Below the pieces are notes generated by a model. That model saw only the letters and a list, made by a program, of their open reading frames with translations. It was not told the origin of the DNA and did not search any database. Below, piece after piece: positions 9,191 through 36,283 of a DNA stretch of 64,000 nt; the first letter of the stretch is position 1; each line of letters begins with the position of its first letter. The DNA is taken from positions 124,001 to 188,000 of the forward strand of contig JARICA010000008.1 in assembly GCA_029264305.1 (NCBI GenBank), in the 5' to 3' direction. This DNA is from Faecalimonas sp. GTDB lineage: Bacteria; Bacillota; Clostridia; Lachnospirales; Lachnospiraceae. The translations under genes were made by a program, and so were the position numbers.

Positions 9191-9257
9191 AAAAAAGAAT
9201 GAAAAAACATCAAATTATTAATTGTTTTGCACAAAACATATAATAGGGAGTGGGAAA

Positions 9258-12200
9258 ATGAAAAAGAAAAGAATTTTATCATTGTTACTTGCGGCGACGT
9301 TAACCTTTAGTAGTATGCCAATGGTCTTGGCAAAAGAAGGGGTTAAACCATCCGATCAAACAACAAAAGAACAACCCTTTTGGGCAGGAACAGGAGAAAG
9401 CGATAAATTTCGTATTCCATGTTTAGTGTCATTGGATGATGGAACTTTGGTAGCTGGTTGTGATGCTAGGTGGACAACGCACATGGATGGGGGAGGATTG
9501 GATACAATTGTGTCCTATTCAAAAGATAAAGGGAAAACATGGAATTATACATTTGCCAATTATTTAGGGGATAATGGAAATGAACACAACGTCAATTCTA
9601 CAGCTTTCATTGATCCAGCAATGGCAACAGATGGGAAAAAGGTATATATGATTGCTGATTTATATCCAGCAGGGTATGCTTTAAACGGAGCAAAGAAATC
9701 GCCACTTGCCGGAAAGAGCCATGATGATAAAGGAAATATTCTTTTAGCAGATGCAAGAGGCTGGAATGATGTATGGTGTGGCGAACGTACAAAACCTGAA
9801 AATTATACATATCGTTTAGTGAAAAATACAAAAGAAAATAAAAATGATGCATACTTTATTCAAGATAAAGATGGAAAAACAGTAGAAGGTTATACGGTTG
9901 ATGCTTATTTTAATGTGAAAGGAAAAGACGTAAATGCGAATCTTTTTGAAGCGGGTTCGCCGTTTCAAGTGTGGCCTACAGACTATCTTTATTTGACGAC
10001 ATCAGAGAATGGAGGGAAAACATGGTCTGTGCCTTCCATCTTAAATTTAAGAAAAGACAATGAACAATCGCTTCTTGTAGGTCCTGGGCGAGGAATGGTA
10101 ACTTCAAAGGGGAGAATTGTATTTACAGCGTATGAATTTACAGGTGGGGACAAAAATAGTACAGCAATCTACTCTGATGATGGAGGAAAAACATGGAAAC
10201 GAGGAAAATCTGTATCTAGACAAAGCTCTGAAGCGGTTATAACGGAAGCCGATGGGAAATTGTATATGTTCACACGTCATGGTGGGTATTATGTGTCAAC
10301 AGATTGGGGAGAAAATTGGTCTGAACGAAAAAATATGGGGATAACTTATAATTTAAGTTGTCAATTAACAGCAATCACTTATCCGAAAAAAATTGACGGT
10401 AAAACAGCTATTCTTTTTGCGGCACCTTCTAATACCGGAAGTCGTGCAGCAGGAAAAATATTTGTGGCTTTAGTACAAGAAGATGGAACGTTAAAATGGA
10501 CATATGAATATAGTGTGAATGGCTCAGAGTATTATGCGTATTCTTGTTTGGCCGTATTGCCAGATGGAACAGTTGGGCTATTGTATGAAAATGGTTGGAC
10601 AGAAATCACATATACGAGTTTAGATATTGAAGAGATTGTAAAAGGTGGAGTAGTCGGAAATATTTGGTGTACGGATGAAACTGGAAAAGGTGTATCTTCC
10701 GTTACTATGAAATCCAATGTAACAAAAACATTTACTGTAAATGGAGTGAAAGAAAATGCAGAAGTGACTGTAGATTCGGATAATCCATTGGCAGTAAAGG
10801 GAGTATATGAAAAGGGTAAATTAACAGTAACCTCGCAAAAAGTTAAGGGGTTAGAACAGGCAGTTGTCACTGTGAAATCTGGAGAAGCAAGTACAAAAAT
10901 ACGTGTAAATGTGACAGACAGTGAACATTATGAGATTGTAAATCTTCGTGTAGGTGATACAAAAACTTATACGGATAAAACAGGAAATTATAGTGATGAT
11001 ACATTAGAAAGTTTGAACAAAAATATCGCTGATATTACGTTAGAAGGAGAAAACGCAAAAGAAGTAGAAAATGTAAGTAAGGCGAAACTTGCAACAGCAA
11101 ATGGAAAATTTGATGGACAAGAAACAATATTAGACTCGTGTTTATTTACATTTCAATCAGTAAATGGCAAGACAAATACATATACAGTTTCAGCGAAAAG
11201 TGGGGAAACAACGGTGTATTTAAGCCACAAAAATGCACCGAGCAAATGTGCATGTACAACAACATCTGCAAATATTCAATTGGAGCAGAAAGAAAATGAA
11301 ACATTTGCATTGGCCGATACTTCAGCAGGAAATAATGGAAAGTATTTATATTTTTGGAAAGGTGATACTTCAAAATTACATTTTGATCGAAACAGTTCAG
11401 CAGATAACAATTGTACGTTTGAATTATACAAAAAAGTAGAAAAAGAACAATCAGATATTCCTGGATATAAGAAAGTAACAAAATTATCAGAAATAGCAAG
11501 TGGGGAAAGATATCTTATCGCTTCTAAGGCAACAGATGGAACAAATTATGTATTACATCCATCAAATACAACAAGTAGTTTTAATCATGTTGCAAAAGTA
11601 GTGAAACAACAGATTGAAATGAAACCGGAAGCGGAAATTCAACTGGGAACAAATGCGCAGTTTAGCGGAGAGAAAAAGAAAATCAGCAGTAGTCTATTTA
11701 CATTTGATAAAAAAGATAATGGGAAATTTGTGATTTCTGCAATAACAGAAAAAGGAGAGAAAGTATATCTTACTCCAAAGACAGCGACATCAGCAAATAC
11801 ACCATTTACAAAAACAGGTGCAGATCTTACAGTGACTAAGGAAAATGATGGAGTATTTAGTTTCAAACAAGATGGGGAAGGACATAGTGGAGGATATTTA
11901 TACTTCCATAAAGAAGCAGGAAAATTATACTTTGATAGAAACGGAAGTACACATGATAACTGCAAGTTTTCTATTTATAAAGCATCGCAAACTGCAAAGG
12001 ATAGTGAAATTTTAGGGTATGTAAAAGTAAAGGATGTATCTGAAATTGAAAATAACGGACAATATTTAATTGGCGTAAAAGCAGCAGATGGAAAAAATTA
12101 TTTACTTAATCCTTCTCAGGAAACAGAAAAATACGCTTATGTTGCAAAAGTGACTGGTAATTTGTATGAAGGACAGTCAGAAAAGGCTAAAACAACAATA

Positions 12201-13442
12201 ACTATTACAGGAAAAGCAGAGGGAAAAACAGAAGAAACCATTGGAAAAACAACATATTACATTATTGTAAAGAATGAAAAAGAAGAAATAACACTTAAAG
12301 TGGGAGAAACATATAAAATTTCTGGAAAAGTTGTTCAGGTAAAAGGTGATGCGAATAGTATTAAAACAAAAGAAAATAACGGTGTAGCACCTTATAAAGC
12401 AATTGACAAATTAGAAGAGGGTACATATTTATTTGGAAATAGTACACACATTATGTTAAATACATCAAGTACAGAAGGAAATCCAACAGGTTTGGGTATG
12501 AAACGAGCAAACTTACATACGGGTACATATGCAGAATCTTCTTGGACTATCGCAAAAGCAGAAAATGGTTACACAATGAAAGATGTGAATGGAAAATACA
12601 TAAATATTGATAATCAAAATGTAACCTTAAAAGATACGCCACAAGTGCTCACTATAGTAAAACGAAATCAAGGAGGATTTGCAGTTTCGAATAACGGAAA
12701 ATATTTAAATAATTGGGCCCAAGCAAATAATAAAGTGGCAGCTTATGCAAGTGATGACAATGCATGGAATTTTTATACAGCATCTGCAGGTACGGAAGTT
12801 ACTGCTGTAAATGTAGGTAAGGTAGAATTGATTACAAATGGAATTACATATTCGATTCAGATTGTAGATGAACCAAGTATTTGCCAGCATAGTTGGGGAA
12901 AATGGACTGTAGTTGTTGAACCAAGTTGTACAAAAGAAGGAAAAGAGGTTCGCGTTTGTGAAAAATGTGGATTAGAAGAAAAAAGAGTAGTGAAACCAAA
13001 TAAACATACAGAAAAACTTGTAAACAAAAAAGCACCAACTTGTGCAGAGGAAGGGTATACAGGAGATCTTGTGTGTGCAGTATGTGGTGAAATGCTACAA
13101 AAAGGAAAAACTATTGAAAAAGCAGAACATAGTTTTGAAAATGCTAAATGGGAGATTATAAAGCAACCGACTTACACAGAAAATGGAGAAAAAACAAGAA
13201 TTTGTGAAGTGTGTGGAGCAAAAGAAACCCAAATAATACCGATGCTTGAAAAAGTTGAAAGTAATACGGGAAATAATCATTCGGATAAAGTGACTACGCA
13301 ACCAAAAGATCCAGTACAGAAAAACAATACAGCGGGAGTAAAAACAGGTGATCATGCACCAATTACAATGTTACTTATGCTAGTATTAGGAGCAGTAGGA
13401 ACATTTGGAGGAACCATAGTTTATAAAAGAAAAAAGAAATAA
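9258..13442 (+). CDS. Wall-anchored GH33 exo-alpha-sialidase, multidomain
   Basis: 1394 residues from ATG 9258 (GGGAGTGGG upstream; the track start at 9222 gives no export signal). A signal peptide (1-26) precedes the sialidase propeller: 'FRIPCL' near 50, 'AGCDARW', four Asp-boxes (SKDKGKTW, SENGGKTW, SDDGGKTW, STDWGENW) and the nucleophile region 'YAYSCLAVLPDGTVGLLYE' near 426. It should release terminal sialic acid from mucin or other host glycans outside the cell. Next come an Ig-like part, two copies of a roughly 200-residue module ('SSLFTF'...'YLYFHKEAGKLYFDRNGS'), a ricin-like stretch, and three short CxxC modules (about 1208-1330). The tail VKTGDHAP + hydrophobic stretch + KRKKK is a sortase signal. 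Linkage preference is not readable. Confidence 0.92.
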   Translation: MKKKRILSLLLAATLTFSSMPMVLAKEGVKPSDQTTKEQPFWAGTGESDKFRIPCLVSLDDGTLVAGCDARWTTHMDGGGLDTIVSYSKDKGKTWNYTFANYLGDNGNEHNVNSTAFIDPAMATDGKKVYMIADLYPAGYALNGAKKSPLAGKSHDDKGNILLADARGWNDVWCGERTKPENYTYRLVKNTKENKNDAYFIQDKDGKTVEGYTVDAYFNVKGKDVNANLFEAGSPFQVWPTDYLYLTTSENGGKTWSVPSILNLRKDNEQSLLVGPGRGMVTSKGRIVFTAYEFTGGDKNSTAIYSDDGGKTWKRGKSVSRQSSEAVITEADGKLYMFTRHGGYYVSTDWGENWSERKNMGITYNLSCQLTAITYPKKIDGKTAILFAAPSNTGSRAAGKIFVALVQEDGTLKWTYEYSVNGSEYYAYSCLAVLPDGTVGLLYENGWTEITYTSLDIEEIVKGGVVGNIWCTDETGKGVSSVTMKSNVTKTFTVNGVKENAEVTVDSDNPLAVKGVYEKGKLTVTSQKVKGLEQAVVTVKSGEASTKIRVNVTDSEHYEIVNLRVGDTKTYTDKTGNYSDDTLESLNKNIADITLEGENAKEVENVSKAKLATANGKFDGQETILDSCLFTFQSVNGKTNTYTVSAKSGETTVYLSHKNAPSKCACTTTSANIQLEQKENETFALADTSAGNNGKYLYFWKGDTSKLHFDRNSSADNNCTFELYKKVEKEQSDIPGYKKVTKLSEIASGERYLIASKATDGTNYVLHPSNTTSSFNHVAKVVKQQIEMKPEAEIQLGTNAQFSGEKKKISSSLFTFDKKDNGKFVISAITEKGEKVYLTPKTATSANTPFTKTGADLTVTKENDGVFSFKQDGEGHSGGYLYFHKEAGKLYFDRNGSTHDNCKFSIYKASQTAKDSEILGYVKVKDVSEIENNGQYLIGVKAADGKNYLLNPSQETEKYAYVAKVTGNLYEGQSEKAKTTITITGKAEGKTEETIGKTTYYIIVKNEKEEITLKVGETYKISGKVVQVKGDANSIKTKENNGVAPYKAIDKLEEGTYLFGNSTHIMLNTSSTEGNPTGLGMKRANLHTGTYAESSWTIAKAENGYTMKDVNGKYINIDNQNVTLKDTPQVLTIVKRNQGGFAVSNNGKYLNNWAQANNKVAAYASDDNAWNFYTASAGTEVTAVNVGKVELITNGITYSIQIVDEPSICQHSWGKWTVVVEPSCTKEGKEVRVCEKCGLEEKRVVKPNKHTEKLVNKKAPTCAEEGYTGDLVCAVCGEMLQKGKTIEKAEHSFENAKWEIIKQPTYTENGEKTRICEVCGAKETQIIPMLEKVESNTGNNHSDKVTTQPKDPVQKNNTAGVKTGDHAPITMLLMLVLGAVGTFGGTIVYKRKKK

Positions 13443-17505: not shown

Positions 17506-17577
17506 ATGATGAAGTTAACGAAATTTAAATATATAGGTAAACAGGCAGACGGGATAAGTCTGCCTGTTTTTGCATAA
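17506..17577 (+). CDS. Possible 23-codon peptide overlapping a terminator
   Basis: ATGATGAAG... encodes MMKLTKFKYIGKQADGISLPVFA with GAAAGGAGT correctly spaced upstream, and the stop lies just past the hairpin. The ribosome site is as strong as those of real genes nearby. It could be a small protein, a leader peptide affecting termination, or the decayed start of a lost gene. I do not recognise the sequence. Confidence 0.25.
   Translation: MMKLTKFKYIGKQADGISLPVFA
17539..17571 (+). terminator. Terminator of the Rrf2 transcript
   Basis: AAACAGGCAGAC / GTCTGCCTGTTT, perfect 12-bp stem, 7-nt loop, then T residues; it lies inside the 23-codon ORF. Confidence 0.8.
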
Positions 17578-17656: not shown

Positions 17657-20600
17657 ATGAAAATTAGAAAAGTTAAGTTTTTAAGTATGTTGCTTGTTAT
17701 GGTGATGATTATTAATATGTTACCATTATCAGTGTTTGCTAAAGATGTCTATGATCAAAATATTTTGGGAGTGGGAACTCAATCTGAGAATAAGTATCTA
17801 GATTATATGTCTCGAAAAAATTCAAAAGAACATGTCTTACGTTTTAATAAAATGTCCCTTACAAATTATTGGATGACGAAGGATGATAATCAAACAAAGT
17901 ATGTTGTTTTTTGTTTTAATGAAAAGAAATCTGCCCCAAATCGTACAATGTATTTGAAAAAGTTTGAAAATGGTACAGAAAATGAATTTGCAAGTCTTGC
18001 AGCAGATCCTATAAAAGGACGTCTTGGAAGTACTTATGTTCGTAATTCTGTTATGTGGGCAACTTATTTGGGATACCCAGGAAATAAAGGTGTCTGTAAT
18101 AATCAATCCTTCATAGATCGTGCGATAGATTTTTATCATATCCCAGATGAATATGCAGAAGATGCGGTGCGTTTAGCGACACAGATGGCAGTTTGGCTAT
18201 TTACTGACTATAACACTGCACTTGATAAATTTTGGAGTCCGATTAAAGCAGATGGAAGTTTAGGAAAAGGAAATTGGGATCGAATTAAAATTTGTGATAA
18301 GTATGATACTTCTATGGGAGATCCTATTACTTACCTTGCGGCAGATATTGCGTATCAAGCCTATGATAATAGTGGAGATGCTCCAAAGGATATGGTGCTC
18401 GATCTTTACATTCCTAAATCAGAAGAATACCGTGATTATAAGCAAAATCTTCTTGTTACGTATTATAAAGAAATGAAAATTGAGAGAAAACCTGTGAAAG
18501 TTACGCTAGATGTGCAGAAAAAAATGGATAACGGTCGAAAAGTAACGGACAAAGAATTTTCTTTTGATTTTGTTGGAAGAGATAGCAAACAAGATTACAA
18601 TCAAAAGGTTTATAACAATTCTAATGGGAAAATTATGATTCCAGAGCTTACGTTTACTGAACCTGGAAAATATCAATTTTATATTCAAGAAAATAAAGGG
18701 AATAATCCAGATGTAGAATATGAAACTAGTAAATTTCCGATTACAGTTACTGTTGAGGGTGTAAGAGATTTGAAAACACGAGTTTCTTATGGAGAACAAG
18801 GAAAAGATCAACTTGTTATTACTAATAAAGTCAAATTACCACAACTTGGTCAGTTAAGAATAGGTAAGACTGTTGCAGGAGAAGGTGCCGATTCCAGTAA
18901 ACAGTTTGATTTTACGGTAACATTGAAGGATGCACAAGGGAATCTTGTTTCTGGAAACTTTGGGGGATATACTTTTAGTAAAGGAATTGCCAATGTAAAA
19001 GTTAGTCAAAATAAACCGGTGACAATTACAGATATTCCAGCCGGAATAACATATACAGTAACAGAAAATCTTTTGCCAGAGAATAGTGACTATACTCTAA
19101 CCTCCTCAAATAACCTTACAGGTACTATTCGAGAAAATAATGTAGCAGAGGCAGAGTTTTTAAATACTACAAAACCAATTCAGCTTTATGGAAAACTTAA
19201 GATTAGTAAAGTAGTGAAAGGAGTTCCTAGCGGACAGAAAATAGATAAGTTTACCTTTACGGTGAAGTTAGACAATCCGAAAGCAGACGTTTCAAAAGTA
19301 ACGGGTGCTACATTTAAAAATGGAGAAGCGACGGTATCAGTGGCTGCGGGAGGTTCAATTATTATTACTGGCTTACCAGCTGGAGTTGGTTATACTGTAA
19401 CAGAGCGTACTTTAGATGGGTATGCTGTGACATCTACAGGGTCTACAGGATATATTGTTGCGAATCAACAAAAAGATGTTAATTTTGTAAATACATATTT
19501 GAATACCGGAGAGTTGACGGTTCAAAAAGTGATTGAGGGTTCTGGGGCATCAGATGCTGATGTTTTCAAATTTAAATTAACACTAAGCAATGACGAAGGA
19601 TTGCTTACGAACAAAACTTGTATAGTGAAATTTGAAGATGGTTCCAAAGTAACTAAACAGATTGTGAATGGGGAACTAGAATTTGCCATTAAAGGAAGTG
19701 GTTTTGCCACTATTACAGACTTGCCAGTTGGTGTACACTATCAAGTTGCAGAAAAACAAGCCGATGGTTCTTTTACAAGTACACAAGATAATATTGTTGA
19801 AAACGGATATAAACTTACAAGTGTGACAGGAAATGGACAGACTACTATAGCTGAAAAGACAATGAAGGTTGTCTTTACAAATACAAAGCATTTGCAAAAA
19901 GGATATTTGCAGATTTTTAAGGCTATTGAAGGAAGCAAGAGCGATAAGAATGATGAATTTGGTTTTCGGATTACATTAAAAAATAAGAGTGGAGTGCCTT
20001 TGTCAGGTACATATTTAAACCAGGATGGAGAAAAAATTAATTTTGATTCTTCAGGAGTGGCTGTTGTTGCAACAAAAGGAGGAAAAGGTTCTATACTTCC
20101 TTCGGTAAGAATTAAAGATTTGCCAGTGGGAACTCGATATAGCGTGGAAGAATTTACAGGTGTGCCAGGAGAGTACACAGCCATTGCGGGAAATGTTGTA
20201 AAGGATGGATATGTGCTGAAAAAAATTATTGGAAAAGCATCTGGCACAATTGGTGTAGGAAAAAATTCAATGACCTTTTTAAACCGAAAAGCAGACACTT
20301 CGCTCACAATTCAGAAAAAGATTGCAGGAGATCATTGGACAGATGATATTTTTACTTTTAGTATTAGACTTTTAGGAAATGGAGCAAGATTTAACGGAGT
20401 TCGAGATGGAGTGACATTTAAAAATGGATATGCTGAAGTAAATATTCAAGGTGCAGGTACAAAAATGATTACGGGTATTCCAGAATCGAATTATACTATT
20501 GCTGAGAAACCGGTGAAAGGTTGGAATATACCAAAGCAACAATCAGGAACGTTGACTGATGGAATTCCTAAAACAGTTGTTTTTGAAAATGTTAAGGAAA

Positions 20601-21469
20601 AAATAGCACCTGCAGTAGTATCATTGCAGGCGAGAAAACTTTTTGATGGTCAAGTTCCAGCAGAAGGAGAATTTACTTTTATATTAAAAGATGGAAACGG
20701 AAAAACGATAGATATCAAAAATAACGGAGTTGATGGAAAAATTTTATTTGATTCGATACCGATACAAGAAATAGGTGTGTATACTTATAATATTTCTGAA
20801 GAGCCTGGAAATTCTGAACTTATCTCTTATGATTCAACAGTCTACACAGCAGTGGTTCGTGTTACTAAGGATGAGCGTAGTCATAGCTTAAAGGCAGAAG
20901 TGACATACCAAAAAAATGAAGGAGAGGTTGTTTCTGAATTGGTTTTTGAAAATAAAACGATTATTCCTGAAACAACATCTGTAAAAGTAGAGAAAAAATG
21001 GAATTTGGATGATGGTGGTACAGCAACTTCTTATGTGACGGTAGCATTGTTGAAAGATGGTGTTAGATATGAAACGATTGAACTGAGCGAACAAAATGGT
21101 TGGACATACACTTGGGAAAATTTGAGCAAAGATAATGTATGGACGGTTGAAGAGGTAGATGTTCCAGAAGGATTCCAATCTTCTGTGGAGAAAAAGAATA
21201 AAACATTCGTTATTATTAATGATGATATTCCAGAAAAGCCAACGAAACCAGAAAAACCAGAGGAACTAGAAAAGCCAACAAAACCAGAAAAGGCAAATAC
21301 AAGTATGAAAAAGGAAGAACCAAGAAAAGAACGTGTATCAGTAACTCGTGTTTCTGTTCCGAAAACAAATGATATGAGCCATGTATATATGTGGATGGTG
21401 ATGAGTATGGTTTCTTTAAGTGGAGTCGGAATTGTTCTGTTGAGAATTAAGAAAAGAAAAAGAAATTAA
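17657..21469 (+). CDS. Thioester-domain surface adhesin with pilin-like repeats and PKTND sorting signal
   Basis: 1270 residues. A signal peptide (1-28) leads to a thioester-type domain: 'YVVFCFNEKK' (Cys86) and 'ATQMAVWLF' (Gln176) fit the Cys-Gln pair that forms an internal thioester in streptococcal and clostridial adhesins and can bond covalently to host protein amines. An isopeptide-linkage (FctA/SpaA-like) domain follows ('VTLDVQKKMDNGRKVTDKEFSF' ... 'LVITNK'), then about five DUF5979-like beta repeats of 105-140 residues ('ITGLPAGVGYTVTER', 'FVNTY'), another linkage domain, and a Cna-B-like domain ('SVKVEKKWNLDDGG'). A Pro/Glu/Lys wall-spanning stretch precedes VPKTND + hydrophobic helix + KKRKRN. 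It is probably anchored by the sortase encoded next. AAGGAGG supports the start. Confidence 0.85.
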   Translation: MKIRKVKFLSMLLVMVMIINMLPLSVFAKDVYDQNILGVGTQSENKYLDYMSRKNSKEHVLRFNKMSLTNYWMTKDDNQTKYVVFCFNEKKSAPNRTMYLKKFENGTENEFASLAADPIKGRLGSTYVRNSVMWATYLGYPGNKGVCNNQSFIDRAIDFYHIPDEYAEDAVRLATQMAVWLFTDYNTALDKFWSPIKADGSLGKGNWDRIKICDKYDTSMGDPITYLAADIAYQAYDNSGDAPKDMVLDLYIPKSEEYRDYKQNLLVTYYKEMKIERKPVKVTLDVQKKMDNGRKVTDKEFSFDFVGRDSKQDYNQKVYNNSNGKIMIPELTFTEPGKYQFYIQENKGNNPDVEYETSKFPITVTVEGVRDLKTRVSYGEQGKDQLVITNKVKLPQLGQLRIGKTVAGEGADSSKQFDFTVTLKDAQGNLVSGNFGGYTFSKGIANVKVSQNKPVTITDIPAGITYTVTENLLPENSDYTLTSSNNLTGTIRENNVAEAEFLNTTKPIQLYGKLKISKVVKGVPSGQKIDKFTFTVKLDNPKADVSKVTGATFKNGEATVSVAAGGSIIITGLPAGVGYTVTERTLDGYAVTSTGSTGYIVANQQKDVNFVNTYLNTGELTVQKVIEGSGASDADVFKFKLTLSNDEGLLTNKTCIVKFEDGSKVTKQIVNGELEFAIKGSGFATITDLPVGVHYQVAEKQADGSFTSTQDNIVENGYKLTSVTGNGQTTIAEKTMKVVFTNTKHLQKGYLQIFKAIEGSKSDKNDEFGFRITLKNKSGVPLSGTYLNQDGEKINFDSSGVAVVATKGGKGSILPSVRIKDLPVGTRYSVEEFTGVPGEYTAIAGNVVKDGYVLKKIIGKASGTIGVGKNSMTFLNRKADTSLTIQKKIAGDHWTDDIFTFSIRLLGNGARFNGVRDGVTFKNGYAEVNIQGAGTKMITGIPESNYTIAEKPVKGWNIPKQQSGTLTDGIPKTVVFENVKEKIAPAVVSLQARKLFDGQVPAEGEFTFILKDGNGKTIDIKNNGVDGKILFDSIPIQEIGVYTYNISEEPGNSELISYDSTVYTAVVRVTKDERSHSLKAEVTYQKNEGEVVSELVFENKTIIPETTSVKVEKKWNLDDGGTATSYVTVALLKDGVRYETIELSEQNGWTYTWENLSKDNVWTVEEVDVPEGFQSSVEKKNKTFVIINDDIPEKPTKPEKPEELEKPTKPEKANTSMKKEEPRKERVSVTRVSVPKTNDMSHVYMWMVMSMVSLSGVGIVLLRIKKRKRN

Positions 21470-21479
21470 ATAGATTTTG

Positions 21480-21520
21480 GGAATGTTACACTGAATAATT
21501 GGTGTAACATTCTCTTTTTA
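21480..21520 (+). terminator. Terminator after the adhesin gene
   Basis: GGAATGTTACAC / GTGTAACATTC stem, then TCTTTTTA. Confidence 0.8.
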
Positions 21521-21621
21521 TATAAACCTATTTAATAAAATTTGTAATCACACATTTTTAAAAATGCTATAAAAGATTTGGAGATATTTTATATTTGCTA
21601 TATTTTATTATATATAATTTG

Positions 21622-21630
21622 TGGTATAAT
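21622..21630 (+). promoter_or_regulatory. Extended -10 promoter of the sortase gene
   Basis: TGGTATAAT, 36 nt before the ATG. No clear -35. Confidence 0.45.
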
Positions 21631-21665
21631 AAGTTTCTAAGCAAAAACATAAAGAAGGAGTATAT

Positions 21666-22490
21666 ATGGACGCAAAAGAAAAACGAAAATTACACAGACA
21701 AAAAATGAAAGAAGAAGGGAAATATCAAAACAAGAAAAAGCAAGGCAAAAAGAAAAATTCTATTTTTAGTACGATTATTTTGATTGTGGCTATTTGTGTG
21801 TTTTGTTACTCCGCTTTTCAACTATATCAGATTTTTTCTTCTTATAAAAAAGGGAATGATGAATATGATAAAATCAAGAATTTAGCAATCACAGTAGAGC
21901 AAACTAAGAAGGGTGAAGAGAGATTCACAGTCGACTTTAATAAATTATGGGAGATTAACCCAGATACAGTAGCATGGATTCGCTTTGAGGAACCGTCAAG
22001 AATTAACTATCCTGTAGTACACAGCAAGGATAATCAAGAATATTTGAAAAAACTTTTTGGTACAGGAAAGAACACCTACGGCACATTATTTGTAGATAAA
22101 GATAATTCTGGAAATCTTCAAGATAGAAATACAATTATTTATGGACATCGTATGAAGAGTGGTTCGATGTTTGGACAATTAGAGAAATATATGGAAGAAT
22201 CATTCTATAAGGAACATCCATATTTCTATATGTATACTCCTGATGGAAAAGAATCAAAATATCAAGTTATTTCGGCAGCTGTAGTAAAAGATACTTCGAA
22301 AACATATACAAAAACTTTTAACAGTGATGAGGAATTTATGAATTATATAAATTATGTACGTTCTATTTCGAATTATCAAACAGATGCTGAAGTGACAAAG
22401 GATTCACATATTGTCAGCTTATCTACTTGTACAATTGATAGTAATGAAGATCGATTTGTATTACAGGCAGTAAAAATTAGTGAGAGATAG
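21666..22490 (+). CDS. srtB: Class B sortase
   Basis: 274 residues, membrane-anchored with a long Lys-rich cytoplasmic start and one TM segment (about 35-55), i.e. type II orientation. The sortase barrel shows 'TVAWIRFEEPSRINYPVVHSKDNQEYL' (class B signature), catalytic His in 'IIYGHRMKSGSMF' (about 160), Cys in 'VSLSTCTID' and Arg in 'NEDRFVLQAVK'. It cleaves a sorting signal and joins the protein to peptidoglycan or to another subunit. The adhesin immediately upstream ends VPKTND, close to the NPQTN/NPKTN motif of class B enzymes, and is the best substrate candidate. AAGGAG precedes the ATG. Confidence 0.92.
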   Translation: MDAKEKRKLHRQKMKEEGKYQNKKKQGKKKNSIFSTIILIVAICVFCYSAFQLYQIFSSYKKGNDEYDKIKNLAITVEQTKKGEERFTVDFNKLWEINPDTVAWIRFEEPSRINYPVVHSKDNQEYLKKLFGTGKNTYGTLFVDKDNSGNLQDRNTIIYGHRMKSGSMFGQLEKYMEESFYKEHPYFYMYTPDGKESKYQVISAAVVKDTSKTYTKTFNSDEEFMNYINYVRSISNYQTDAEVTKDSHIVSLSTCTIDSNEDRFVLQAVKISER

Positions 22491-24096: not shown

Positions 24097-27000
24097 ATGA
24101 ATAGGTTTACAAAAGGAACAGCACGTTTCGGAGCAACTTTGCTCACAGCCGTTTTGACAATGTCTTGCTTATCACCATTAGCAACAACGAATGCGAATGT
24201 AGAAGTAAGAACACAGTCTCAAACACAGATGAGTTCGGATAAAGAAGTTGTGTACATGAACACATTGAATAATGTGACAGAACGTACACAAAATTTTGAC
24301 GCGAACTGGAAATTTTATTTAGGTGATGCGGGAAATGCTCAAACAAGTAATTTTGATGATTCCAAGTGGAGAAATATTTCTTTGCCACATGATTACAGTA
24401 TTGAGCAAGCATATTCTCAGCAAATGGAAGCAGAAAGTGGGTATCTTCCTGGAGGAACAGGTTGGTATCGTAAGCATTTCACTGTAGGAAATGAGTTAAA
24501 AGGAAAAGAGATTCGTCTTAATTTTGATGGCGTTTACATGAATTCTACAGTATATATTAATGGTGAAGAATTAGGAACACATCCATATGGATATACGCCA
24601 TTCTCATTTGATTTGACAAAACACATCAAATTCGGTGAGGAAAATGTTATTTCGGTTAAGGTTGATCATAAAACACCTTCAAGTCGTTGGTATTCAGGAA
24701 GTGGTATTTACAGAAGTGTAAACTTAACAGTGACAGATGCTGTAAATATTGCTTTAAATGGAACAAAGGTAGAAACACCTGAACTTGCAACAAATCAGGC
24801 ACAGGTAAAAACAAAAGTAAGAACAACTGTAGAAAATGATGGTACAGAAGCAAAAGATGTTATTTTGACACATAAAGTGTTTGAAAAGAAAAATCCAAAT
24901 ACTGTTATTGGAACAACAACGACATCAAAAGAAACAATTCAGGCGAATGGCAAAAAGGATATTAATGCAGAATTTACTGTAAATAATCCAAACTTATGGG
25001 ATACAGAACACCCAAATCTTTACACAGTTCGTACAGAAGTAAAAGTAGGAGATAAGGTTGTTGATACATATGACACAGAGTATGGTTTCCGTTATACAGA
25101 ATTTAATAAAGACAGAGGATATTATTTAAATGGAAAACCTGTAAAATTAAAAGGTGTTTGTATGCATCATGATCAAGGAGCATTAGGTGCTGTAGCAAAT
25201 CGTCGTGCAATTGAACGTCAAGTTGAAATTTTACAGGAAATGGGTTGTAACTCTATTCGTGTAACACATAACCCGGCTGCACAAAACTTGATTGATGTTT
25301 GCAATGAAAAAGGTATTTTAGTTGTAGAAGAAATTTTTGACGGTTGGCATCATGCAAAAAATGGAAATACCGAAGACTTTGCAAAATACTTTGATAAAAA
25401 AATCGGAGAAAACAATACAGTGTTAGGCGCAACACCAAATATGACATGGGCGGAATTTTCTTTAAAATCTACTTTGAGAAGAGATCAGAATGCACCATCT
25501 GTTATTATGTGGTCTTTGGGAAATGAAATCCAAGAAGGCGCTGGATATAGTGATTATGATGAAAAAGTACCTTACTTAATTAAATGGGCAAAAGATGTAG
25601 ATACAACTAAAGAATTAACTATTGGGAGTAATCAAGTAAAAAACGAACCTACTAATACTGGAGATACAGAACATTCTAAAGTTGCTGATAAGATTACAGA
25701 AGCTGGTGGAAGTTCAGGAACAAACTATAGTAAAAATACAGGATATGAAGATTTAAGAAAAAAACATCCTAACTGGAAGATCTATGGTTCAGAAACGGCA
25801 TCTTCTATTAACAGTCGTGGTGTATATCATACAAAAGGAAGAGATGATTCTACACAAGAATTAACATCTTATGATAAATCAACAGTAGGTTGGGGAGCAT
25901 TGGCTAATGATGCATGGTATGATGTAATTACACGTGATTTTGTTGCAGGAGAGTATGTATGGACAGGATTTGACTATATTGGTGAACCTACTCCATGGAA
26001 TGAAACAAAAGCAGGTCCAAAGGGACATTGGCCATCACCAAAGAACTCGTTCTTCGGTATTATTGATACAGCAGGAATGCCAAAAGATTCTTATTATTTA
26101 TATCAGAGTCAATGGAATGATAAAGTAAACACACTTCATGTATTGCCTACATGGAATAAAGATGGAATTATTTTAAATAATGGAAATGCAGAAGTGGCTG
26201 TATATTCAGATGCTCCAAAAGTAGAACTGTGGTTGACACCAAAGGGAAGCACGATAGCGAAAAAAGTTGGAGAAACACAGACAATAACAAAGAAAAATAC
26301 ACCAGTAGGACATAGTTATTATGAAAATGAAAATACAAAGAAACTTTATCGTACCTGGAATGTGAAGTATGAAGAAGGCACATTGGAAGCTAGAGCCTTT
26401 AATGAAAAAGGAGAGCGTATCACAAAAACAGAAGGACGTTCTTCTGTAACAACAGCGGGACCGAAAGCAAAATTGCAAGTAAAAGCAGATCGGAAAGAAA
26501 TCAAAGCAAACGGAAAAGACCTATCTTATTTGCAGATTGATGTAACAGATGCAAATGGAAATATTGTACCGAATGCAGATGATAAAGTAAAAGTTGAAGT
26601 GACTGGAAATGGAACTTTAGTAGGGTTAGATAATGGATGGCAAACAGATCATGATTCTTATAAAGGAACAGAGCGCAGAGTTTATAACGGCTCAGGAATT
26701 GCTATTATACAGTCTACAAAGAACGCTGGTGATATTACGGTTAAAGTCTCAGCTAATGGATTAGGAGAACAGACAATTACTTTAAAAACAAAAGCAGATG
26801 CAACTAGTGGACAGCAGAAAGTTGTTGTAGATAGTTTCTTTATGACAAAGAACTATTATGTTAAAGTTGGAAACAAACCAAGTTTACCAGAAAAAATCGA
26901 AGTAAGATATTCGGATGGGAAGAAAGAACAGAAAGCAGTTCAATGGGGACAAATTACAAATGAACAGATAAATAAAGCAGGGGCTTTTGCATTGGATGGA

Positions 27001-29655
27001 ACTGTAGATGGTAAATATAAAGTATCTGTAAGAGTCAATATGATTGATGAAGTGGGTGGCTTATTAAATTATTCTACAGCTGTTAAAGTTGGAACGAAAC
27101 CAATATTGCCAGAAGCAAGAACAGCATATTTAAGTAATGGAGAAGTGTTGGATGTTGCGTTCCCGGTGAAGTGGGAAGAAAAAACTGCACAAGACTATAA
27201 TAAAGTAGGTGTAGTCATAGTGAACGGTACAGCAAATGTGTTAGGGAAAGATGTAAAAGTAACGGCAAATGTTCGTGTGGCGAATGAAGATGTAGCAATT
27301 GGTGATAGTGTTTCAGGACAGGCAAGTATTTTAAAACAAGATATTCCAGAGAATATGCAATCAGATACATTAGCAGCAATTAAGGATGGAAAACTAGGGA
27401 AAGATGCAAACGCTGAAGGTGGAACAAATAAAAGTGTTTGGACGAACTATAAGTATTCACAAGCAGGAAACAATAAGGCTACAATTACTATGGGATATGA
27501 TACACAACAGGTTATTGGGGAAATAGTTATTCACTTTTTTGAAGATAGTTATAGTGCAAGGTTCCCAGCAGCTAATACAACAAAGATTTCGGTTTCGGAA
27601 ACAGCAGATGGTCCTTGGACGACTGTAACAGCAAAAGAACAGATTGGTGAAGCTAGAGATGGTATTAAAGCGTATACTTATCAATTAAATGCACCTGTTT
27701 CCGCTACATATATTAAATTTGAAGTAACGAATAAGGATGTTAATTTAGGAGATCATAAACCTTGTACTGGTATTACAGAAATTGAATTAAAGAAAGCAAC
27801 AACTTCCTTTAAGACAAACACAACTGCTGAATTAAGCAAATTAGCAGTAAACAATGTAGAGTTGACAGCAGAACAACTTGCATCTGGAAAATATACAACA
27901 TCAGCACTTGTTGCTACAGTTGTAGCAGAAGGAAAAGACAATGCAGCAGTAACTGTTCTTCCAAAGAACAAAGAAAATCAAGTAAAAATTATTATTGAAT
28001 CAGAAGATCATAAAACGACAAAAACATTTACAATCTTCTTAAATGATAAAGATCCTGATGTTTTCTATCCAAATAAAGACATTACAGCTTCTTCACCATC
28101 AGTATTAACAGGTCCTACAAATAATGAAGGGAAAGTTGAATATGTGCTAGATGGAGATGTAAATACACATTGGCATACAAATTGGAAAACAAATGAGGCA
28201 GATAATGTAGATCACCGTGAAATTACATTGACATTACAAGAAGCAACTACAATTAATGCGATGAATTATCATCCACGTGTATATAATGGTGGAAATGGTC
28301 GTGTAACAAAATATAAAATTTTGTATAGTGTAGATGGAACTACATTTAAAGACACAGATGTATGTGCGGAAGGAACTATTTCTAAGGATAAAGCAGATTG
28401 GACATTACTTGAATTTACAAAACCTGTAAAAGCAAAAGCATTCAAATTAATTGGTGTCGAAACATATGCAGATTCAGGAAATAACAAGCACATGGCAGTT
28501 GCAGAATTACGTTTAAGAATGCAGAGAGAAACAACAGATATCTCAAATGCTGAAAATAAAGTAGTGCTTGACCCTATCGCAAAACAAAAAGTAGATGTGG
28601 TAGATGAAAATCATCCAGTAGAACCACAAGTAACTGTAAAACAGAATGGAACAGCATTAACATATGGAATTGACTACAAGGTAAGTTATGCAAATAATAC
28701 AGCAGTGGGAACAGCGAAAGCAATTGTAACAGGTATTGGAAAATACTCAGGAACATTAGAAACAACTTTTGAAATTGAAAAGAATCCAGTTTCATTAAAG
28801 AGTATTGCAGTAAAAACTGCTCCAAAACAGGATTACCATGTAGGAGATAAATTCAATCCGGAAGGATTGGTATTAACTGTATTCTACAGTGATGCTACAT
28901 CATCAGAAGTTGCTTATACAGCAGAAACAAAAGGTAAATTTACATTCAATCCTTCTTTAGAAAAAGCTTTAGCTACTACAGATAAAGTTGTAACGGTAAC
29001 TTATGAAGGAAAAACAACAGAAATTCCAGTAAATGTTACAGAAGGAACAACATCTTCTGTAAGAAAAGATTTAGAGGAAAGAGTGAAATTTGCACAATCA
29101 ATTACTCCAAACGGATATACAGCAGATAGTTATAAAGTGTTTAAAGATGCGTTGAAAGCAGCAGAGGCAATGTTAGCAAATACAAATGCTACAGATGCAC
29201 AGTTACAGAAAGCATTAGATAACTTGAATGCAGGAATTAATGGATTGAAAGAAGAGTCGGTAAAACCAAATCCGAATCCAAATCCAGACAATAATGGAGA
29301 ACGCGATGAACTTCGTGCAAAATTACAGAAATTCTATGATGAGTGCTTAACATACTACAAAGAGGGTAACTATTCTAAAGAAAATTGGAATCGTTATCAA
29401 GATGCAATGACACAGGCAAAAGAAGCTTTAGAAGATAAAGATGCAACAAAGAAAGAATTAAAAGATGCACTTTCAAACTTAATTGATGCAACAAAACATT
29501 TGAACTCTGAAGGAAAAGGAGAAGGAAATGTTCCTACTCCACCAACTAATGTAAAAACAGGAGATCAAGCACCAGTTAAAATGATTGTTGGATTGATGGT
29601 AATTGCAGTTGTAGCAATTGTAGGTGTTATCATTTACAAAAAGAAAAGAAAATAA
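24097..29655 (+). CDS. Wall-anchored GH2 beta-galactosidase, multidomain
   Basis: 1852 residues. After a signal peptide (about 1-34) come the GH2 sugar-binding domain ('FDANWKFYLGDAGNAQ', 'PGGTGWYRKHF'), the Ig-like domain, and the TIM barrel with 'LKGVCMHHDQGALGA', acid/base Glu in 'VIMWSLGNEIQEG' (about 475) and the probable nucleophile Glu in 'IYGSETASS' (about 563). DUF4982-like and GH2 C-terminal domains follow, two Ig-like bacterial domains, a galactose-binding-like domain, a CBM32-type F5/8C domain (about 1327-1475, 'NTHWHTNW'), and two three-helix FIVAR-like modules (about 1650-1805). The tail is VKTGDQAP + hydrophobic + KKKRK. It should remove terminal beta-galactose from host glycans at the cell surface; linkage choice is unknown. 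Confidence 0.92.
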   Translation: MNRFTKGTARFGATLLTAVLTMSCLSPLATTNANVEVRTQSQTQMSSDKEVVYMNTLNNVTERTQNFDANWKFYLGDAGNAQTSNFDDSKWRNISLPHDYSIEQAYSQQMEAESGYLPGGTGWYRKHFTVGNELKGKEIRLNFDGVYMNSTVYINGEELGTHPYGYTPFSFDLTKHIKFGEENVISVKVDHKTPSSRWYSGSGIYRSVNLTVTDAVNIALNGTKVETPELATNQAQVKTKVRTTVENDGTEAKDVILTHKVFEKKNPNTVIGTTTTSKETIQANGKKDINAEFTVNNPNLWDTEHPNLYTVRTEVKVGDKVVDTYDTEYGFRYTEFNKDRGYYLNGKPVKLKGVCMHHDQGALGAVANRRAIERQVEILQEMGCNSIRVTHNPAAQNLIDVCNEKGILVVEEIFDGWHHAKNGNTEDFAKYFDKKIGENNTVLGATPNMTWAEFSLKSTLRRDQNAPSVIMWSLGNEIQEGAGYSDYDEKVPYLIKWAKDVDTTKELTIGSNQVKNEPTNTGDTEHSKVADKITEAGGSSGTNYSKNTGYEDLRKKHPNWKIYGSETASSINSRGVYHTKGRDDSTQELTSYDKSTVGWGALANDAWYDVITRDFVAGEYVWTGFDYIGEPTPWNETKAGPKGHWPSPKNSFFGIIDTAGMPKDSYYLYQSQWNDKVNTLHVLPTWNKDGIILNNGNAEVAVYSDAPKVELWLTPKGSTIAKKVGETQTITKKNTPVGHSYYENENTKKLYRTWNVKYEEGTLEARAFNEKGERITKTEGRSSVTTAGPKAKLQVKADRKEIKANGKDLSYLQIDVTDANGNIVPNADDKVKVEVTGNGTLVGLDNGWQTDHDSYKGTERRVYNGSGIAIIQSTKNAGDITVKVSANGLGEQTITLKTKADATSGQQKVVVDSFFMTKNYYVKVGNKPSLPEKIEVRYSDGKKEQKAVQWGQITNEQINKAGAFALDGTVDGKYKVSVRVNMIDEVGGLLNYSTAVKVGTKPILPEARTAYLSNGEVLDVAFPVKWEEKTAQDYNKVGVVIVNGTANVLGKDVKVTANVRVANEDVAIGDSVSGQASILKQDIPENMQSDTLAAIKDGKLGKDANAEGGTNKSVWTNYKYSQAGNNKATITMGYDTQQVIGEIVIHFFEDSYSARFPAANTTKISVSETADGPWTTVTAKEQIGEARDGIKAYTYQLNAPVSATYIKFEVTNKDVNLGDHKPCTGITEIELKKATTSFKTNTTAELSKLAVNNVELTAEQLASGKYTTSALVATVVAEGKDNAAVTVLPKNKENQVKIIIESEDHKTTKTFTIFLNDKDPDVFYPNKDITASSPSVLTGPTNNEGKVEYVLDGDVNTHWHTNWKTNEADNVDHREITLTLQEATTINAMNYHPRVYNGGNGRVTKYKILYSVDGTTFKDTDVCAEGTISKDKADWTLLEFTKPVKAKAFKLIGVETYADSGNNKHMAVAELRLRMQRETTDISNAENKVVLDPIAKQKVDVVDENHPVEPQVTVKQNGTALTYGIDYKVSYANNTAVGTAKAIVTGIGKYSGTLETTFEIEKNPVSLKSIAVKTAPKQDYHVGDKFNPEGLVLTVFYSDATSSEVAYTAETKGKFTFNPSLEKALATTDKVVTVTYEGKTTEIPVNVTEGTTSSVRKDLEERVKFAQSITPNGYTADSYKVFKDALKAAEAMLANTNATDAQLQKALDNLNAGINGLKEESVKPNPNPNPDNNGERDELRAKLQKFYDECLTYYKEGNYSKENWNRYQDAMTQAKEALEDKDATKKELKDALSNLIDATKHLNSEGKGEGNVPTPPTNVKTGDQAPVKMIVGLMVIAVVAIVGVIIYKKKRK

Positions 29656-29675
29656 AGTTTGAATAAAATCAGCAG

Positions 29676-29708
29676 AATCCCGTTTCGGAAATGAAACGGG
29701 ATTTTTGT
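29676..29708 (+). terminator. Terminator after the GH2 gene
   Basis: AATCCCGTTTC / GAAACGGGATT, perfect 11-bp stem, then TTTGTG. Confidence 0.85.
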
Positions 29709-29721
29709 GTATAAAAAATGA

Positions 29722-29750
29722 TTGTGGAGAGACATAACCTATGGTATAAT
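29722..29750 (+). promoter_or_regulatory. Promoter of the first GH20 gene
   Basis: TTGTGG (29722-29727), 17-nt spacer with TG at the extended -10 position, TATAAT (29745-29750). Confidence 0.65.
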
Positions 29751-29797
29751 CCGACTGTTATTTAAAAAATATTTAACAGAAAAGGAGATTTGAATTT

Positions 29798-31525
29798 ATG
29801 AAAGTATTCAAAAAGTTACTTGCAGTAACACTTGCTCTAGGAATTACTGTGGGAGCAGGGGTTGCAACTGGTAAGACAACAGAAGTAAAGGCAGCAGAAC
29901 AAGCAAACTTAAAAAGCGTTTTCTCAATTGACGCAGGAAGAAAATATTTTTCTTTAGAGCAATTAAAGACAATTGTAGATAAAGCGTATAAAAATGGTTA
30001 TACTGATGTTCAAGTTTTATTAGGAAATGACGGACTTCGTTTATTATTAAATGATATGTCTTTAAAAGTAAATGGAACAACATATAGCAGTGATGCTGTT
30101 AAAAATGCAATTTTAGCAGGTAATAAATCATACTATGATGATCCAAACGGAAATGTGCTTACACAATCTGAAATGGATAGTCTACTTGCATATGCAAAAG
30201 AAAGAGGAATGAATATTATTCCAGTAATCAACAGCCCTGGACATATGGATGCAATCTTAGTTGCTATGGAAAAATTAGGAATTGAAAACCCACAGTTTGA
30301 AGGTTCTGTACGTACAGTAGACCTTAAAAATGAAAAAGCAATTGCATTTACAAAAGCATTAGTAGCAAAATATGTAAATTATTTTTCAAAATCATGTGAA
30401 ATTTTCAACTTTGGTACAGATGAATATGCAAATGATAAAAATACTGGTGGTTGGGCAAACTTACAGAGAACAGGTTTATATAGAGAATTAGTTAAATATG
30501 TAAATGATTTAGCTAAAATTGTAAAAGATGCAAAAATGACACCAATGTGTTTCAATGATGGTATTTACTATAAGAGTACAGAGAAGTTTGGAACATTTGA
30601 CAAAGATATTATTATTTCATACTGGACATCAGGATGGGGGGGATATGATGTAGCAAAACCTAAGTATTTTGCAGAAAAAGGTCATAAAATCTTAAATACA
30701 AATGACGGTTGGTACTGGGTATTAGGAAACTACAGCAAAGAAGAACATAAAAATGGTTATATCTATGATAGTGCTGTGAAAAACATTAAAGAAAAAAGCT
30801 TTACAGCAGTAACAGGTGCAGCTGAAGGAGATCAACTTTCTCTTATCGGAAGTATGCAGTGTGTATGGTCTGATTATCCATCAGAAAAATATGAAGAAGA
30901 TAAAGTACTTGGTTTAATGGACTTATTCTCTGAAAAACACAGTAACTATTTAGTACGTCCAGCAGATTATACAAAAGTAGATGCAGCTATTGCTAACATT
31001 CCTTCTGATTTAAGTGTGTATACAGAAGAAACTGTAAATGCACTTAACGAAGCAAAAAATGCTGTTGTAAGAAACAAAAGAGTAACAGAACAGAATGTTG
31101 TTGATGGGTATGCAAATGCAATCAATACAGCAATTGATGCTTTAGTTTACAAAACAGCAGATTATACAAAAGTAGATGCAGCTATTGCAAAAGCAAATGC
31201 ATTAAACAAAGCAGATTATAAAGATTTTTCAAAAGTAGAAAAAGCAATTAAAGCAGTAAAACGTGATTTAGATATTACAAAACAGGCTGAAGTAGATGCT
31301 ATGGCAAAAGCTATTGAAGATGCTATTGCGACATTAGAGAAAAAAGCACCTACAGTTAACGGAAACACAAACGGAACAACTGGTGGAAATACAACAACTA
31401 GTGGAACATCTGGAAGTGTTAAGACAGGAGATACAACAAATATGATGTTATGGGTAATGTTATTGGTTGTGTCAGCTGGAGCAGCTGGAGTTTTCTACGT
31501 AAAACAACGTAAAGTAAACAGATAG
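29798..31525 (+). CDS. Wall-anchored GH20 beta-N-acetylhexosaminidase (StrH-like)
   Basis: 575 residues. The signal peptide (1-34) is followed by a GH20 barrel (about 40-385) that closely resembles the catalytic repeats of pneumococcal StrH: 'FSIDAGRKYFSLEQLKTIVDKA', 'VLLGNDGLRLLLNDM', 'PVINSPGHMDAILVAMEKLG', the catalytic Asp-Glu pair in 'NFGTDEYAND' (about 207), 'MCFNDGIYY' and 'NTNDGWYWVLG'. It should remove non-reducing beta-GlcNAc from N- or O-glycans by the substrate-assisted mechanism. Two FIVAR-like helical repeats (about 388-520) begin with the same 34 nt. The tail VKTGDTTN + hydrophobic + KQRKVNR is a sorting signal. It has its own promoter and terminator. Unlike StrH it has one catalytic domain. 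Confidence 0.9.
   Translation: MKVFKKLLAVTLALGITVGAGVATGKTTEVKAAEQANLKSVFSIDAGRKYFSLEQLKTIVDKAYKNGYTDVQVLLGNDGLRLLLNDMSLKVNGTTYSSDAVKNAILAGNKSYYDDPNGNVLTQSEMDSLLAYAKERGMNIIPVINSPGHMDAILVAMEKLGIENPQFEGSVRTVDLKNEKAIAFTKALVAKYVNYFSKSCEIFNFGTDEYANDKNTGGWANLQRTGLYRELVKYVNDLAKIVKDAKMTPMCFNDGIYYKSTEKFGTFDKDIIISYWTSGWGGYDVAKPKYFAEKGHKILNTNDGWYWVLGNYSKEEHKNGYIYDSAVKNIKEKSFTAVTGAAEGDQLSLIGSMQCVWSDYPSEKYEEDKVLGLMDLFSEKHSNYLVRPADYTKVDAAIANIPSDLSVYTEETVNALNEAKNAVVRNKRVTEQNVVDGYANAINTAIDALVYKTADYTKVDAAIAKANALNKADYKDFSKVEKAIKAVKRDLDITKQAEVDAMAKAIEDAIATLEKKAPTVNGNTNGTTGGNTTTSGTSGSVKTGDTTNMMLWVMLLVVSAGAAGVFYVKQRKVNR
30960..30993 (+). repeat. 34-bp direct repeat, copy 1
   Basis: CAGCAGATTATACAAAAGTA... is identical to 31155-31188, 195 bp (65 codons) away. 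It opens each FIVAR-like module of the GH20 protein. Confidence 0.85.
31155..31188 (+). repeat. 34-bp direct repeat, copy 2
   Basis: Second copy; same reading frame as copy 1, so loss or gain of a module by recombination would keep the frame. Confidence 0.85.
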
Positions 31526-31538
31526 AATTAAAATACAG

Positions 31539-31580
31539 AAAAGACGTGGTGATTTTTAACAAAAGCCCACGTCTTTTTTT
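31539..31580 (+). terminator. Terminator after the first GH20 gene
   Basis: AAAAGACGTGG / CCACGTCTTTT stem with a 17-nt loop, ending in TTTTTTT. Confidence 0.8.
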
Positions 31581-31615
31581 GTGCGTTTTGTGGTATATGC
31601 TATGGTAAGAACATT

Positions 31616-31624
31616 TGATATAAT
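31616..31624 (+). promoter_or_regulatory. Extended -10 promoter of the GH20/GH-A operon
   Basis: TTGATATAAT (TG-A-TATAAT) 52 nt before the ATG; no good -35. Confidence 0.4.
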
Positions 31625-31675
31625 TAGAAAATAGGTAAAAGTTATGCGAAAAGCAGAAGGGAAAGGTAAAGGTAT

Positions 31676-36268: not shown

Positions 36269-36283
36269 AGTAAGGAGAGGGAA

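What the first reader, a model, noticed from the sequence alone, without database searches (positions are those of the whole stretch)
17657..22490. Thioester adhesin paired with its own class B sortase
The protein has a signal peptide, a Cys86...Gln176 pair in the right motifs for an internal thioester, isopeptide-type pilin domains, about five tandem beta repeats and a sorting signal, and is followed by a sortase of the spore/pilin-like class B. Thioester adhesins can bond covalently to host proteins; few are described from gut commensals. This looks like a self-contained covalent attachment system.
Basis: partly seen in the sequence, partly recalled or inferred. Interest (0 to 1): 0.65.

Follow-up and report, generated by a model that had tools for sequence, protein, structure and literature searches.

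The report
Thioester surface adhesin beside housekeeping sortase
A Lachnospiraceae-type bacterium carries a long wall-anchored adhesin whose tip probably bonds covalently to its target, a known kind of protein; the sortase gene next to it looks like the cell's general-purpose anchoring enzyme, not a private partner.

Summary
The two genes are real and in place. ORF 17657-21469 (1270 aa) is a complete TIE-type adhesin: signal peptide, class I-like thioester domain, FctA-like domain, five DUF7601 repeats, second FctA domain, Cna_B domain, sorting signal SVPKTND. Gln176 lies in the conserved TQxxPhiW helix, whose Gln is not the bond former. Colinear alignment to C. perfringens CpTIE (Cys138-Gln267, PDB 5a0g) gives Cys86-Gln263. 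The stalk is well supported: Lys, Glu and Asn are invariant in all five repeats, and one repeat folds confidently (pLDDT 92) with S. pyogenes Cpa as best structural match.

The 'own class B sortase' claim fails. The sortase is a conserved housekeeping-type SrtB about 300 bp upstream of rpsF-ssb-rpsR in related genomes that have no adhesin gene beside it. It groups with those sortases, not with adhesin-linked ones. A strong predicted terminator separates the two genes. It is the only non-pilus sortase found in the genome, and at least 13 other proteins carry KTGD signals. Most likely: a monocistronic covalent adhesin anchored by the general SrtB alongside glycosidases. New member of a known kind. 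Thioester geometry could not be modelled here.

The parts
17657..17740 (+). signal peptide, residues 1-28 (cleavage after SVFA)
   Evidence: sequence
17741..18481 (+). thioester domain (TED, class I-like), residues 29-275
   Evidence: Pfam PF08341 30.2 bits; NF012162 35.8 bits, just under its cut-off of 40, 40.2 in the genome search; PDB 5a0g E=1.3e-8
17912..17914 (+). Cys86, predicted thioester Cys ([YFL]C motif, VVFCFN)
   Evidence: aligned to CpTIE Cys138
18182..18184 (+). Gln176, TQxxPhiW helix Gln; NOT the predicted bond former
18443..18445 (+). Gln263, predicted thioester Gln (YKQNLLV)
   Evidence: aligned to CpTIE Gln267; motif PhiQzetaPhiPhi
18482..18844 (+). FctA/Spy0128-like isopeptide domain 1, residues 276-396 (candidate K288/289, E345, N390)
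18845..20614 (+). five DUF7601 (CnaB-like) isopeptide repeats, residues 397-986; triads K404/E470/N503, K518/E583/N612, K624/E699/N742, K755/E832/N876, K887/E950/N978
   Evidence: PF24547 228.8 bits, 5 stretches; invariant K, E, N; AlphaFold pLDDT 91.6; Foldseek to Cpa
20615..20971 (+). FctA-like domain 2, residues 987-1105 (K994/E1048/N1099)
   Evidence: PF12892, TIGR03786 84.1 bits
20972..21232 (+). Cna_B domain, residues 1106-1192
   Evidence: PF05738 49.8 bits
21353..21466 (+). cell-wall sorting signal SVPKTND, hydrophobic span, KKRKRN tail
17541..17573 (+). terminator-like hairpin upstream of the adhesin gene (GGCAGAC...GTCTGCC then T run)
   Evidence: fold -20.2 kcal/mol, z -5.7; not listed by the pattern scan
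21479..21514 (+). intrinsic terminator between adhesin and srtB
   Evidence: 16 pairs plus T tail; fold -20.6 kcal/mol, z -6.9
21666..22490 (+). class B sortase SrtB (274 aa), conserved housekeeping type linked to rpsF-ssb-rpsR

Best explanation
The protein at 17657-21469 is a wall-anchored TIE-type adhesin. It is secreted by Sec (inferred from the signal peptide). Its N-terminal class I-like thioester domain forms an internal Cys86-Gln263 thioester (inferred from alignment). An exposed amine, probably a lysine on an unidentified host or bacterial surface protein, attacks the thioester and leaves an amide bond (inferred by analogy with SfbI). The head sits on a rigid stalk of eight domains, most or all stapled by Lys-Asn isopeptide bonds (strong sequence evidence for the five repeats and the FctA domains; weaker for Cna_B). 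The C-terminal SVPKTND signal is cleaved by the cell's general SrtB, which links the protein to peptidoglycan (inferred). SrtB is not a dedicated partner: it also serves the KTGD-signal proteins, including the sialidase-like and other glycosidases encoded around it.
For: TED, DUF7601, FctA and Cna_B all above curated cut-offs. Head matches the crystal-proven thioester domain CpTIE with Cys and Gln colinear. K, E and N invariant across five repeats, the triad reported for DUF7601 in PMC12617251. Confident repeat model with best matches to Cpa. srtB lies 294-437 bp before rpsF in six of nine other same-genus genomes, and at 267 and 350 bp in two other genera, with murA-like or other genes upstream instead of a TED gene. 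All nine same-genus genomes have the sortase, yet only one has any TED. Sortase tree puts the target with these, away from pilus, fused or TED-paired sortases. Terminator between the genes. Only four sortases found in the genome: two class C and one class B inside pilus operons, plus this one. KTGD signals on at least 13 proteins. C. difficile precedent: its single SrtB acts on (S/P)PXTG and is proposed as a housekeeping sortase (PMC4155245).
Against: No structural proof of Cys86-Gln263 proximity: the head model had pLDDT 38 and is uninformative. Lys precedes Q263 where the weak motif has a hydrophobic residue. The sorting motif has Asn where other proteins have Gly, and C. difficile SrtB did not cleave NPQTN, so anchoring by this SrtB is not certain. 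The draft genome (23 contigs, 99.98% complete) leaves a small chance of an unseen sortase.
Confidence: 0.8

Rival explanations
1. Dedicated pair: SrtB evolved with and chiefly anchors or polymerises this adhesin.
For: Adjacent genes on the same strand, 196 bp apart. The adhesin has a variant signal (KTND). Across the family 10 of 64 TED matches lie within 5 kb of a SrtB match (hand count), including five in one reading frame with it (three read), so TED-SrtB association is a recurrent theme.
Against: srtB conserved at the rpsF site without any TED gene beside it; terminator between the genes; sortase groups with housekeeping ones, not with TED-linked sortases.
Confidence: 0.07
2. The adhesin is a tip or ancillary subunit handled by the class B sortase of the FCT-like pilus operon on contig C10 rather than by the adjacent SrtB.
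For: Stalk repeats resemble Cpa. A pilus operon with a Cpa-like protein, signal peptidase, FctA-like pilin, class B sortase and FctB-like pilin exists in the genome. KTND departs from KTGD.
Against: That operon has its own Cpa-like protein with an IPETG signal; SVPKTND resembles KTGD-type signals such as TVPKTGD.
Confidence: 0.08
3. The head no longer forms a thioester and acts as a non-covalent adhesin or structural protein.
For: K262 precedes Q263; the second alignment segment is weak (3.1 bits); no usable structural model.
Against: Cys motif, TQxxPhiW helix and the QNLL strand are all kept at colinear positions.
Confidence: 0.1

Closest known systems
CpTIE of Clostridium perfringens (PDB 5a0g/5a0d)
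   Same: Closest solved head; Cys138 and Gln267 align to Cys86 and Gln263; same TQxAVW helix.
   Different: Longer spacing between the bond formers here (177 vs 129 residues).
Cpa (Spy0125) pilus adhesin of Streptococcus pyogenes
   Same: Thioester head plus CnaB-like isopeptide domains; the DUF7601 repeat model matches Cpa best.
   Different: Here a single long gene with no pilin gene beside it; not shown to be a pilus tip.
BaTIE, SfbI and FbaB thioester adhesins
   Same: Overall TIE architecture: secretion signal, TED, isopeptide stalk, wall signal (PMC4450167, PMC6194298).
   Different: BaTIE has a class II TED; SfbI and FbaB are fibronectin-binding proteins, and no such repeat family was matched here.
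Clostridioides difficile SrtB
   Same: Class B sortase proposed as general wall sortase for PXTG-type signals (PMC4155245).
   Different: Here the signals are mostly VKTGD with variants, and the genome also has pilus sortases.

Membership tests
TIE / TED adhesin (PF08341) | profile match over curated cut-off | tested here: met
   30.2 bits vs 22
TIE / TED adhesin (PF08341) | [YFL]C motif Cys | tested here: met
   F85-C86, VVFCFN
TIE / TED adhesin (PF08341) | TQxxPhiW helix motif | tested here: met
   TQMAVW at 175-180
TIE / TED adhesin (PF08341) | bond-forming Gln in weak PhiQzetaPhiPhi strand motif after the helix | tested here: inconclusive
   Q263 in KQNLL aligns to CpTIE Gln267, but the segment is weak alone and Phi is Lys
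TIE / TED adhesin (PF08341) | internal thioester bond (-17 Da, geometry) | not testable with these tools
   needs mass spectrometry; head model pLDDT 38
Isopeptide (CnaB-like) stalk | Lys, Glu and Asn triad in each domain | tested here: met
   invariant K, E, N in five DUF7601 repeats; by eye in both FctA domains; Cna_B less clear
Sortase-anchored wall protein | C-terminal LPXTG-like motif, membrane span, basic tail | tested here: met
   SVPKTND...KKRKRN; but Gly is replaced by Asn and TIGR01167 is below cut-off (12 vs 15.9 bits)
Class B sortase | TIGR03064 match over cut-off | tested here: met
   193.8 vs 153.75 bits
Dedicated adhesin-sortase cassette | sortase gene present only with the adhesin | tested here: not met
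   sortase in all nine other same-genus genomes, TED in one of them
Dedicated adhesin-sortase cassette | shared transcription unit | tested here: not met
   terminator 21479-21514; prediction, no RNA data

The most novel reading that the evidence does not exclude
The bacterium uses a covalent thioester harpoon to fix itself to a mucus or epithelial protein while sialidase-like, GH2 and GH20 enzymes anchored by the same sortase strip host glycans nearby, so that attachment and mucin foraging form one surface programme; the Asn-bearing signal KTND would set the adhesin apart for special sorting.
Probability: 0.12. Interest if true: 0.55.

Novelty: new member of a known kind. Interest (0 to 1): 0.27.

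Why it matters
Covalent adhesion has been shown mainly for streptococcal pathogens. A class I-like thioester adhesin in a bacterium that also displays glycosidases typical of mucin foraging would be a test case for covalent attachment outside pathogens. The corrected residue pair matters in practice, because a Gln176 mutant would be the wrong test. Recognising the sortase as housekeeping changes what an srtB deletion would mean.

Tried and rejected
Single-sequence AlphaFold of the head (residues 29-289): pLDDT 38, not used. Homologues from the genome search and genome-fetch loci were not sent to the structure tool, because its stated rule does not list them. The search for related loci for the head and for the sortase in genome contigs, and for the head alignment A1 in viral contigs, found nothing, so the organism could not be named. 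Head as protein query in 98 relatives: only itself; no plasmid match; NF012162 in 399 genomes of the phylum: only itself. Foreign origin by base composition not supported: gene G+C 0.347 vs window 0.346. Reading Gln176 as thioester partner: rejected. Reading the sortase as pilus type: rejected.

Full report
What is there. ORF 17657-21469 encodes 1270 residues and ORF 21666-22490 encodes 274 residues. Pfam places in the first a TED thioester domain (30.2 bits, cut-off 22), DUF7601 (228.8 bits, five stretches), DUF5979, FctA and Cna_B. NCBIfam gives the pilin isopeptide repeat TIGR03786 (84.1 bits) and a near-threshold thioester-forming surface protein NF012162 (35.8 vs 40); the genome-wide scan scores the latter 40.2. 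The start MKIRKVKFLSMLLVMVMIINMLPLSVFAKD reads as a signal peptide and the end SVPKTND-span-KKRKRN as a sorting signal. The second ORF is a class B sortase by TIGR03064 (193.8 vs 153.75).

The Gln is misassigned. The defining work on these domains states that the bond-forming Cys is in [YFL]CPhizeta and the bond-forming Gln in a weak PhiQzetaPhiPhi strand motif. A separate TQxxPhiW motif on the central helix has a Gln that is not needed for the bond (PMC4450167; PMC6194298). Q176 is in TQMAVW, so it is the helix Gln. The best solved relative is CpTIE (5a0g, E=1.3e-8), whose thioester is Cys138-Gln267. Chain position 49 is Cys138 (offset 89), so chain Q178 is Gln267. In one search C49 aligns to target C86, Q127 to Q176, and Q178 to Q263. 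The last segment is weak alone (3.1 bits), but its order and sequence fit (VLDLYIP...KQNLLVT against VLNLYLP...QNLLGT). I therefore predict Cys86-Gln263. The low-confidence single-sequence model (pLDDT 38) neither supports nor refutes this.

The stalk. The five DUF7601 repeats are 30-37% identical to the reference repeat and share 13 invariant columns, among them K7, E72 and N101. A survey of isopeptide bonds lists a Lys-Glu-Asn triad for DUF7601 (PMC12617251). An AlphaFold model of one repeat, using only the window's own repeats as alignment, has mean pLDDT 91.6. Lys7 falls on the first strand, Glu72 at the end of a middle strand and Asn101 on the last strand. Its best structural matches are S. 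pyogenes Cpa, then other pilins. Both FctA-like domains show the same K, E and N positions by eye. Distances could not be measured because coordinates are not returned.

The sortase is not its own. The genome (1.95 Mb, 99.98% complete) has four sortase matches. Two class C-like sortases lie in a Spa-like pilus operon, one class B in an FCT-like pilus operon, and one is this gene. All nine other same-genus genomes have a close relative of this sortase (45-63% identical), but only one of them has any TED (several of these genomes are incomplete). In six of those nine, srtB lies 294-437 bp upstream of rpsF, as in the window (299 bp). In the others the contig ends first or the link is not seen. 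The upstream gene there is murA-like (EPSP-synthase family by its sequence, four of the six) or another gene, never a TED gene. Two other genera keep the same link at 267 and 350 bp, and two more have about 1.1-1.2 kb in between. A tree groups the target with these and separates it from the pilus, fused and TED-paired sortases. The solved structures it resembles most are anchoring SrtBs.

Transcription. A 16-pair hairpin with a T tail lies at 21479-21514, ten bases after the adhesin stop, fold -20.6 kcal/mol, z -6.9. Another hairpin, about 17541-17573, precedes the adhesin (z -5.7). The adhesin gene therefore looks monocistronic. This is prediction only.

Substrates. Sorting signals in the genome are mostly (P/G/S/N/A)VKTGD with APKTGD and TVPKTGD variants; LPETG and LPSTG were seen only in the Spa operon. 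Wall-anchored neighbours in the window include a sialidase-like protein, a GH2 beta-galactosidase-like enzyme and two GH20 enzymes. The single SrtB of C. difficile is proposed to play such a general role (PMC4155245). The adhesin's Asn in place of Gly is the one odd point; a related protein in another genus (L141) has VPKTGD in the same setting.

Wider context. TED matches occur in 40 of 150 sampled family genomes, but this head subtype in 7 of 397. By hand count, 10 of 64 TED matches lie within 5 kb of a SrtB match. Five of these share one open frame with the sortase; three of the five were read in full. So association of TED adhesins with class B sortases looks like a real trend, but this locus is not a good example of it. 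No formal chance estimate was computed for that trend.

What is shown and what is inferred. Shown by computation: gene boundaries, domain content, triad conservation, sortase orthology and synteny, predicted terminator. Inferred: thioester formation, covalent bonding to an amine, anchoring by SrtB, and the biological target, which is unknown.

Noticed in passing
L126:3259-8169, L114:4271-9190, L115:1611-6512 (genomes G004, G022, G044; also G037 C9 and G114 C11, not read in full): One reading frame of about 1635 aa joins a thioester domain, nine SpaA-type repeats, a VPQTGDD sorting signal and a class B sortase domain: an adhesin fused to a sortase. Neighbouring genes look to me like a conjugative element; a class II thioester adhesin is known to aid conjugation in B. 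subtilis (PMC8092201).
   Followed up: partly
L009:5154-10572 (G000 C10): Complete pilus operon like S. pyogenes FCT-3 and C. perfringens VR-10B: Cpa-like thioester protein, signal peptidase, FctA-like pilin, class B sortase, FctB-like pilin ending VVKTGD.
   Followed up: partly
L120:5310-9910 (G057) and L146:3016-8161 (G165): Thioester adhesin genes followed directly by sortase genes with no pilin gene seen, in other genera; better candidates for a dedicated adhesin-sortase pair than the window locus.
   Followed up: partly
window 9222-13442 and 24097-39757: Cluster of wall-anchored (VKTGD) glycosidases around srtB: sialidase-like, GH2, two GH20, and a LamG/arabinofuranosidase-like protein; suggests mucin foraging.
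   Followed up: partly
L010:6605-8545 (G000 C3): A third thioester protein (646 aa, TED plus SpaA repeats, EVKTGDD signal) in the same genome.
   Followed up: no
G014 C37, G047 C10, G149 C1, G184 C1: In four genomes a TED protein of about 1434-1453 aa lies 26-27 kb from a SrtB match, a spacing so constant that both may sit on one mobile element.
   Followed up: no
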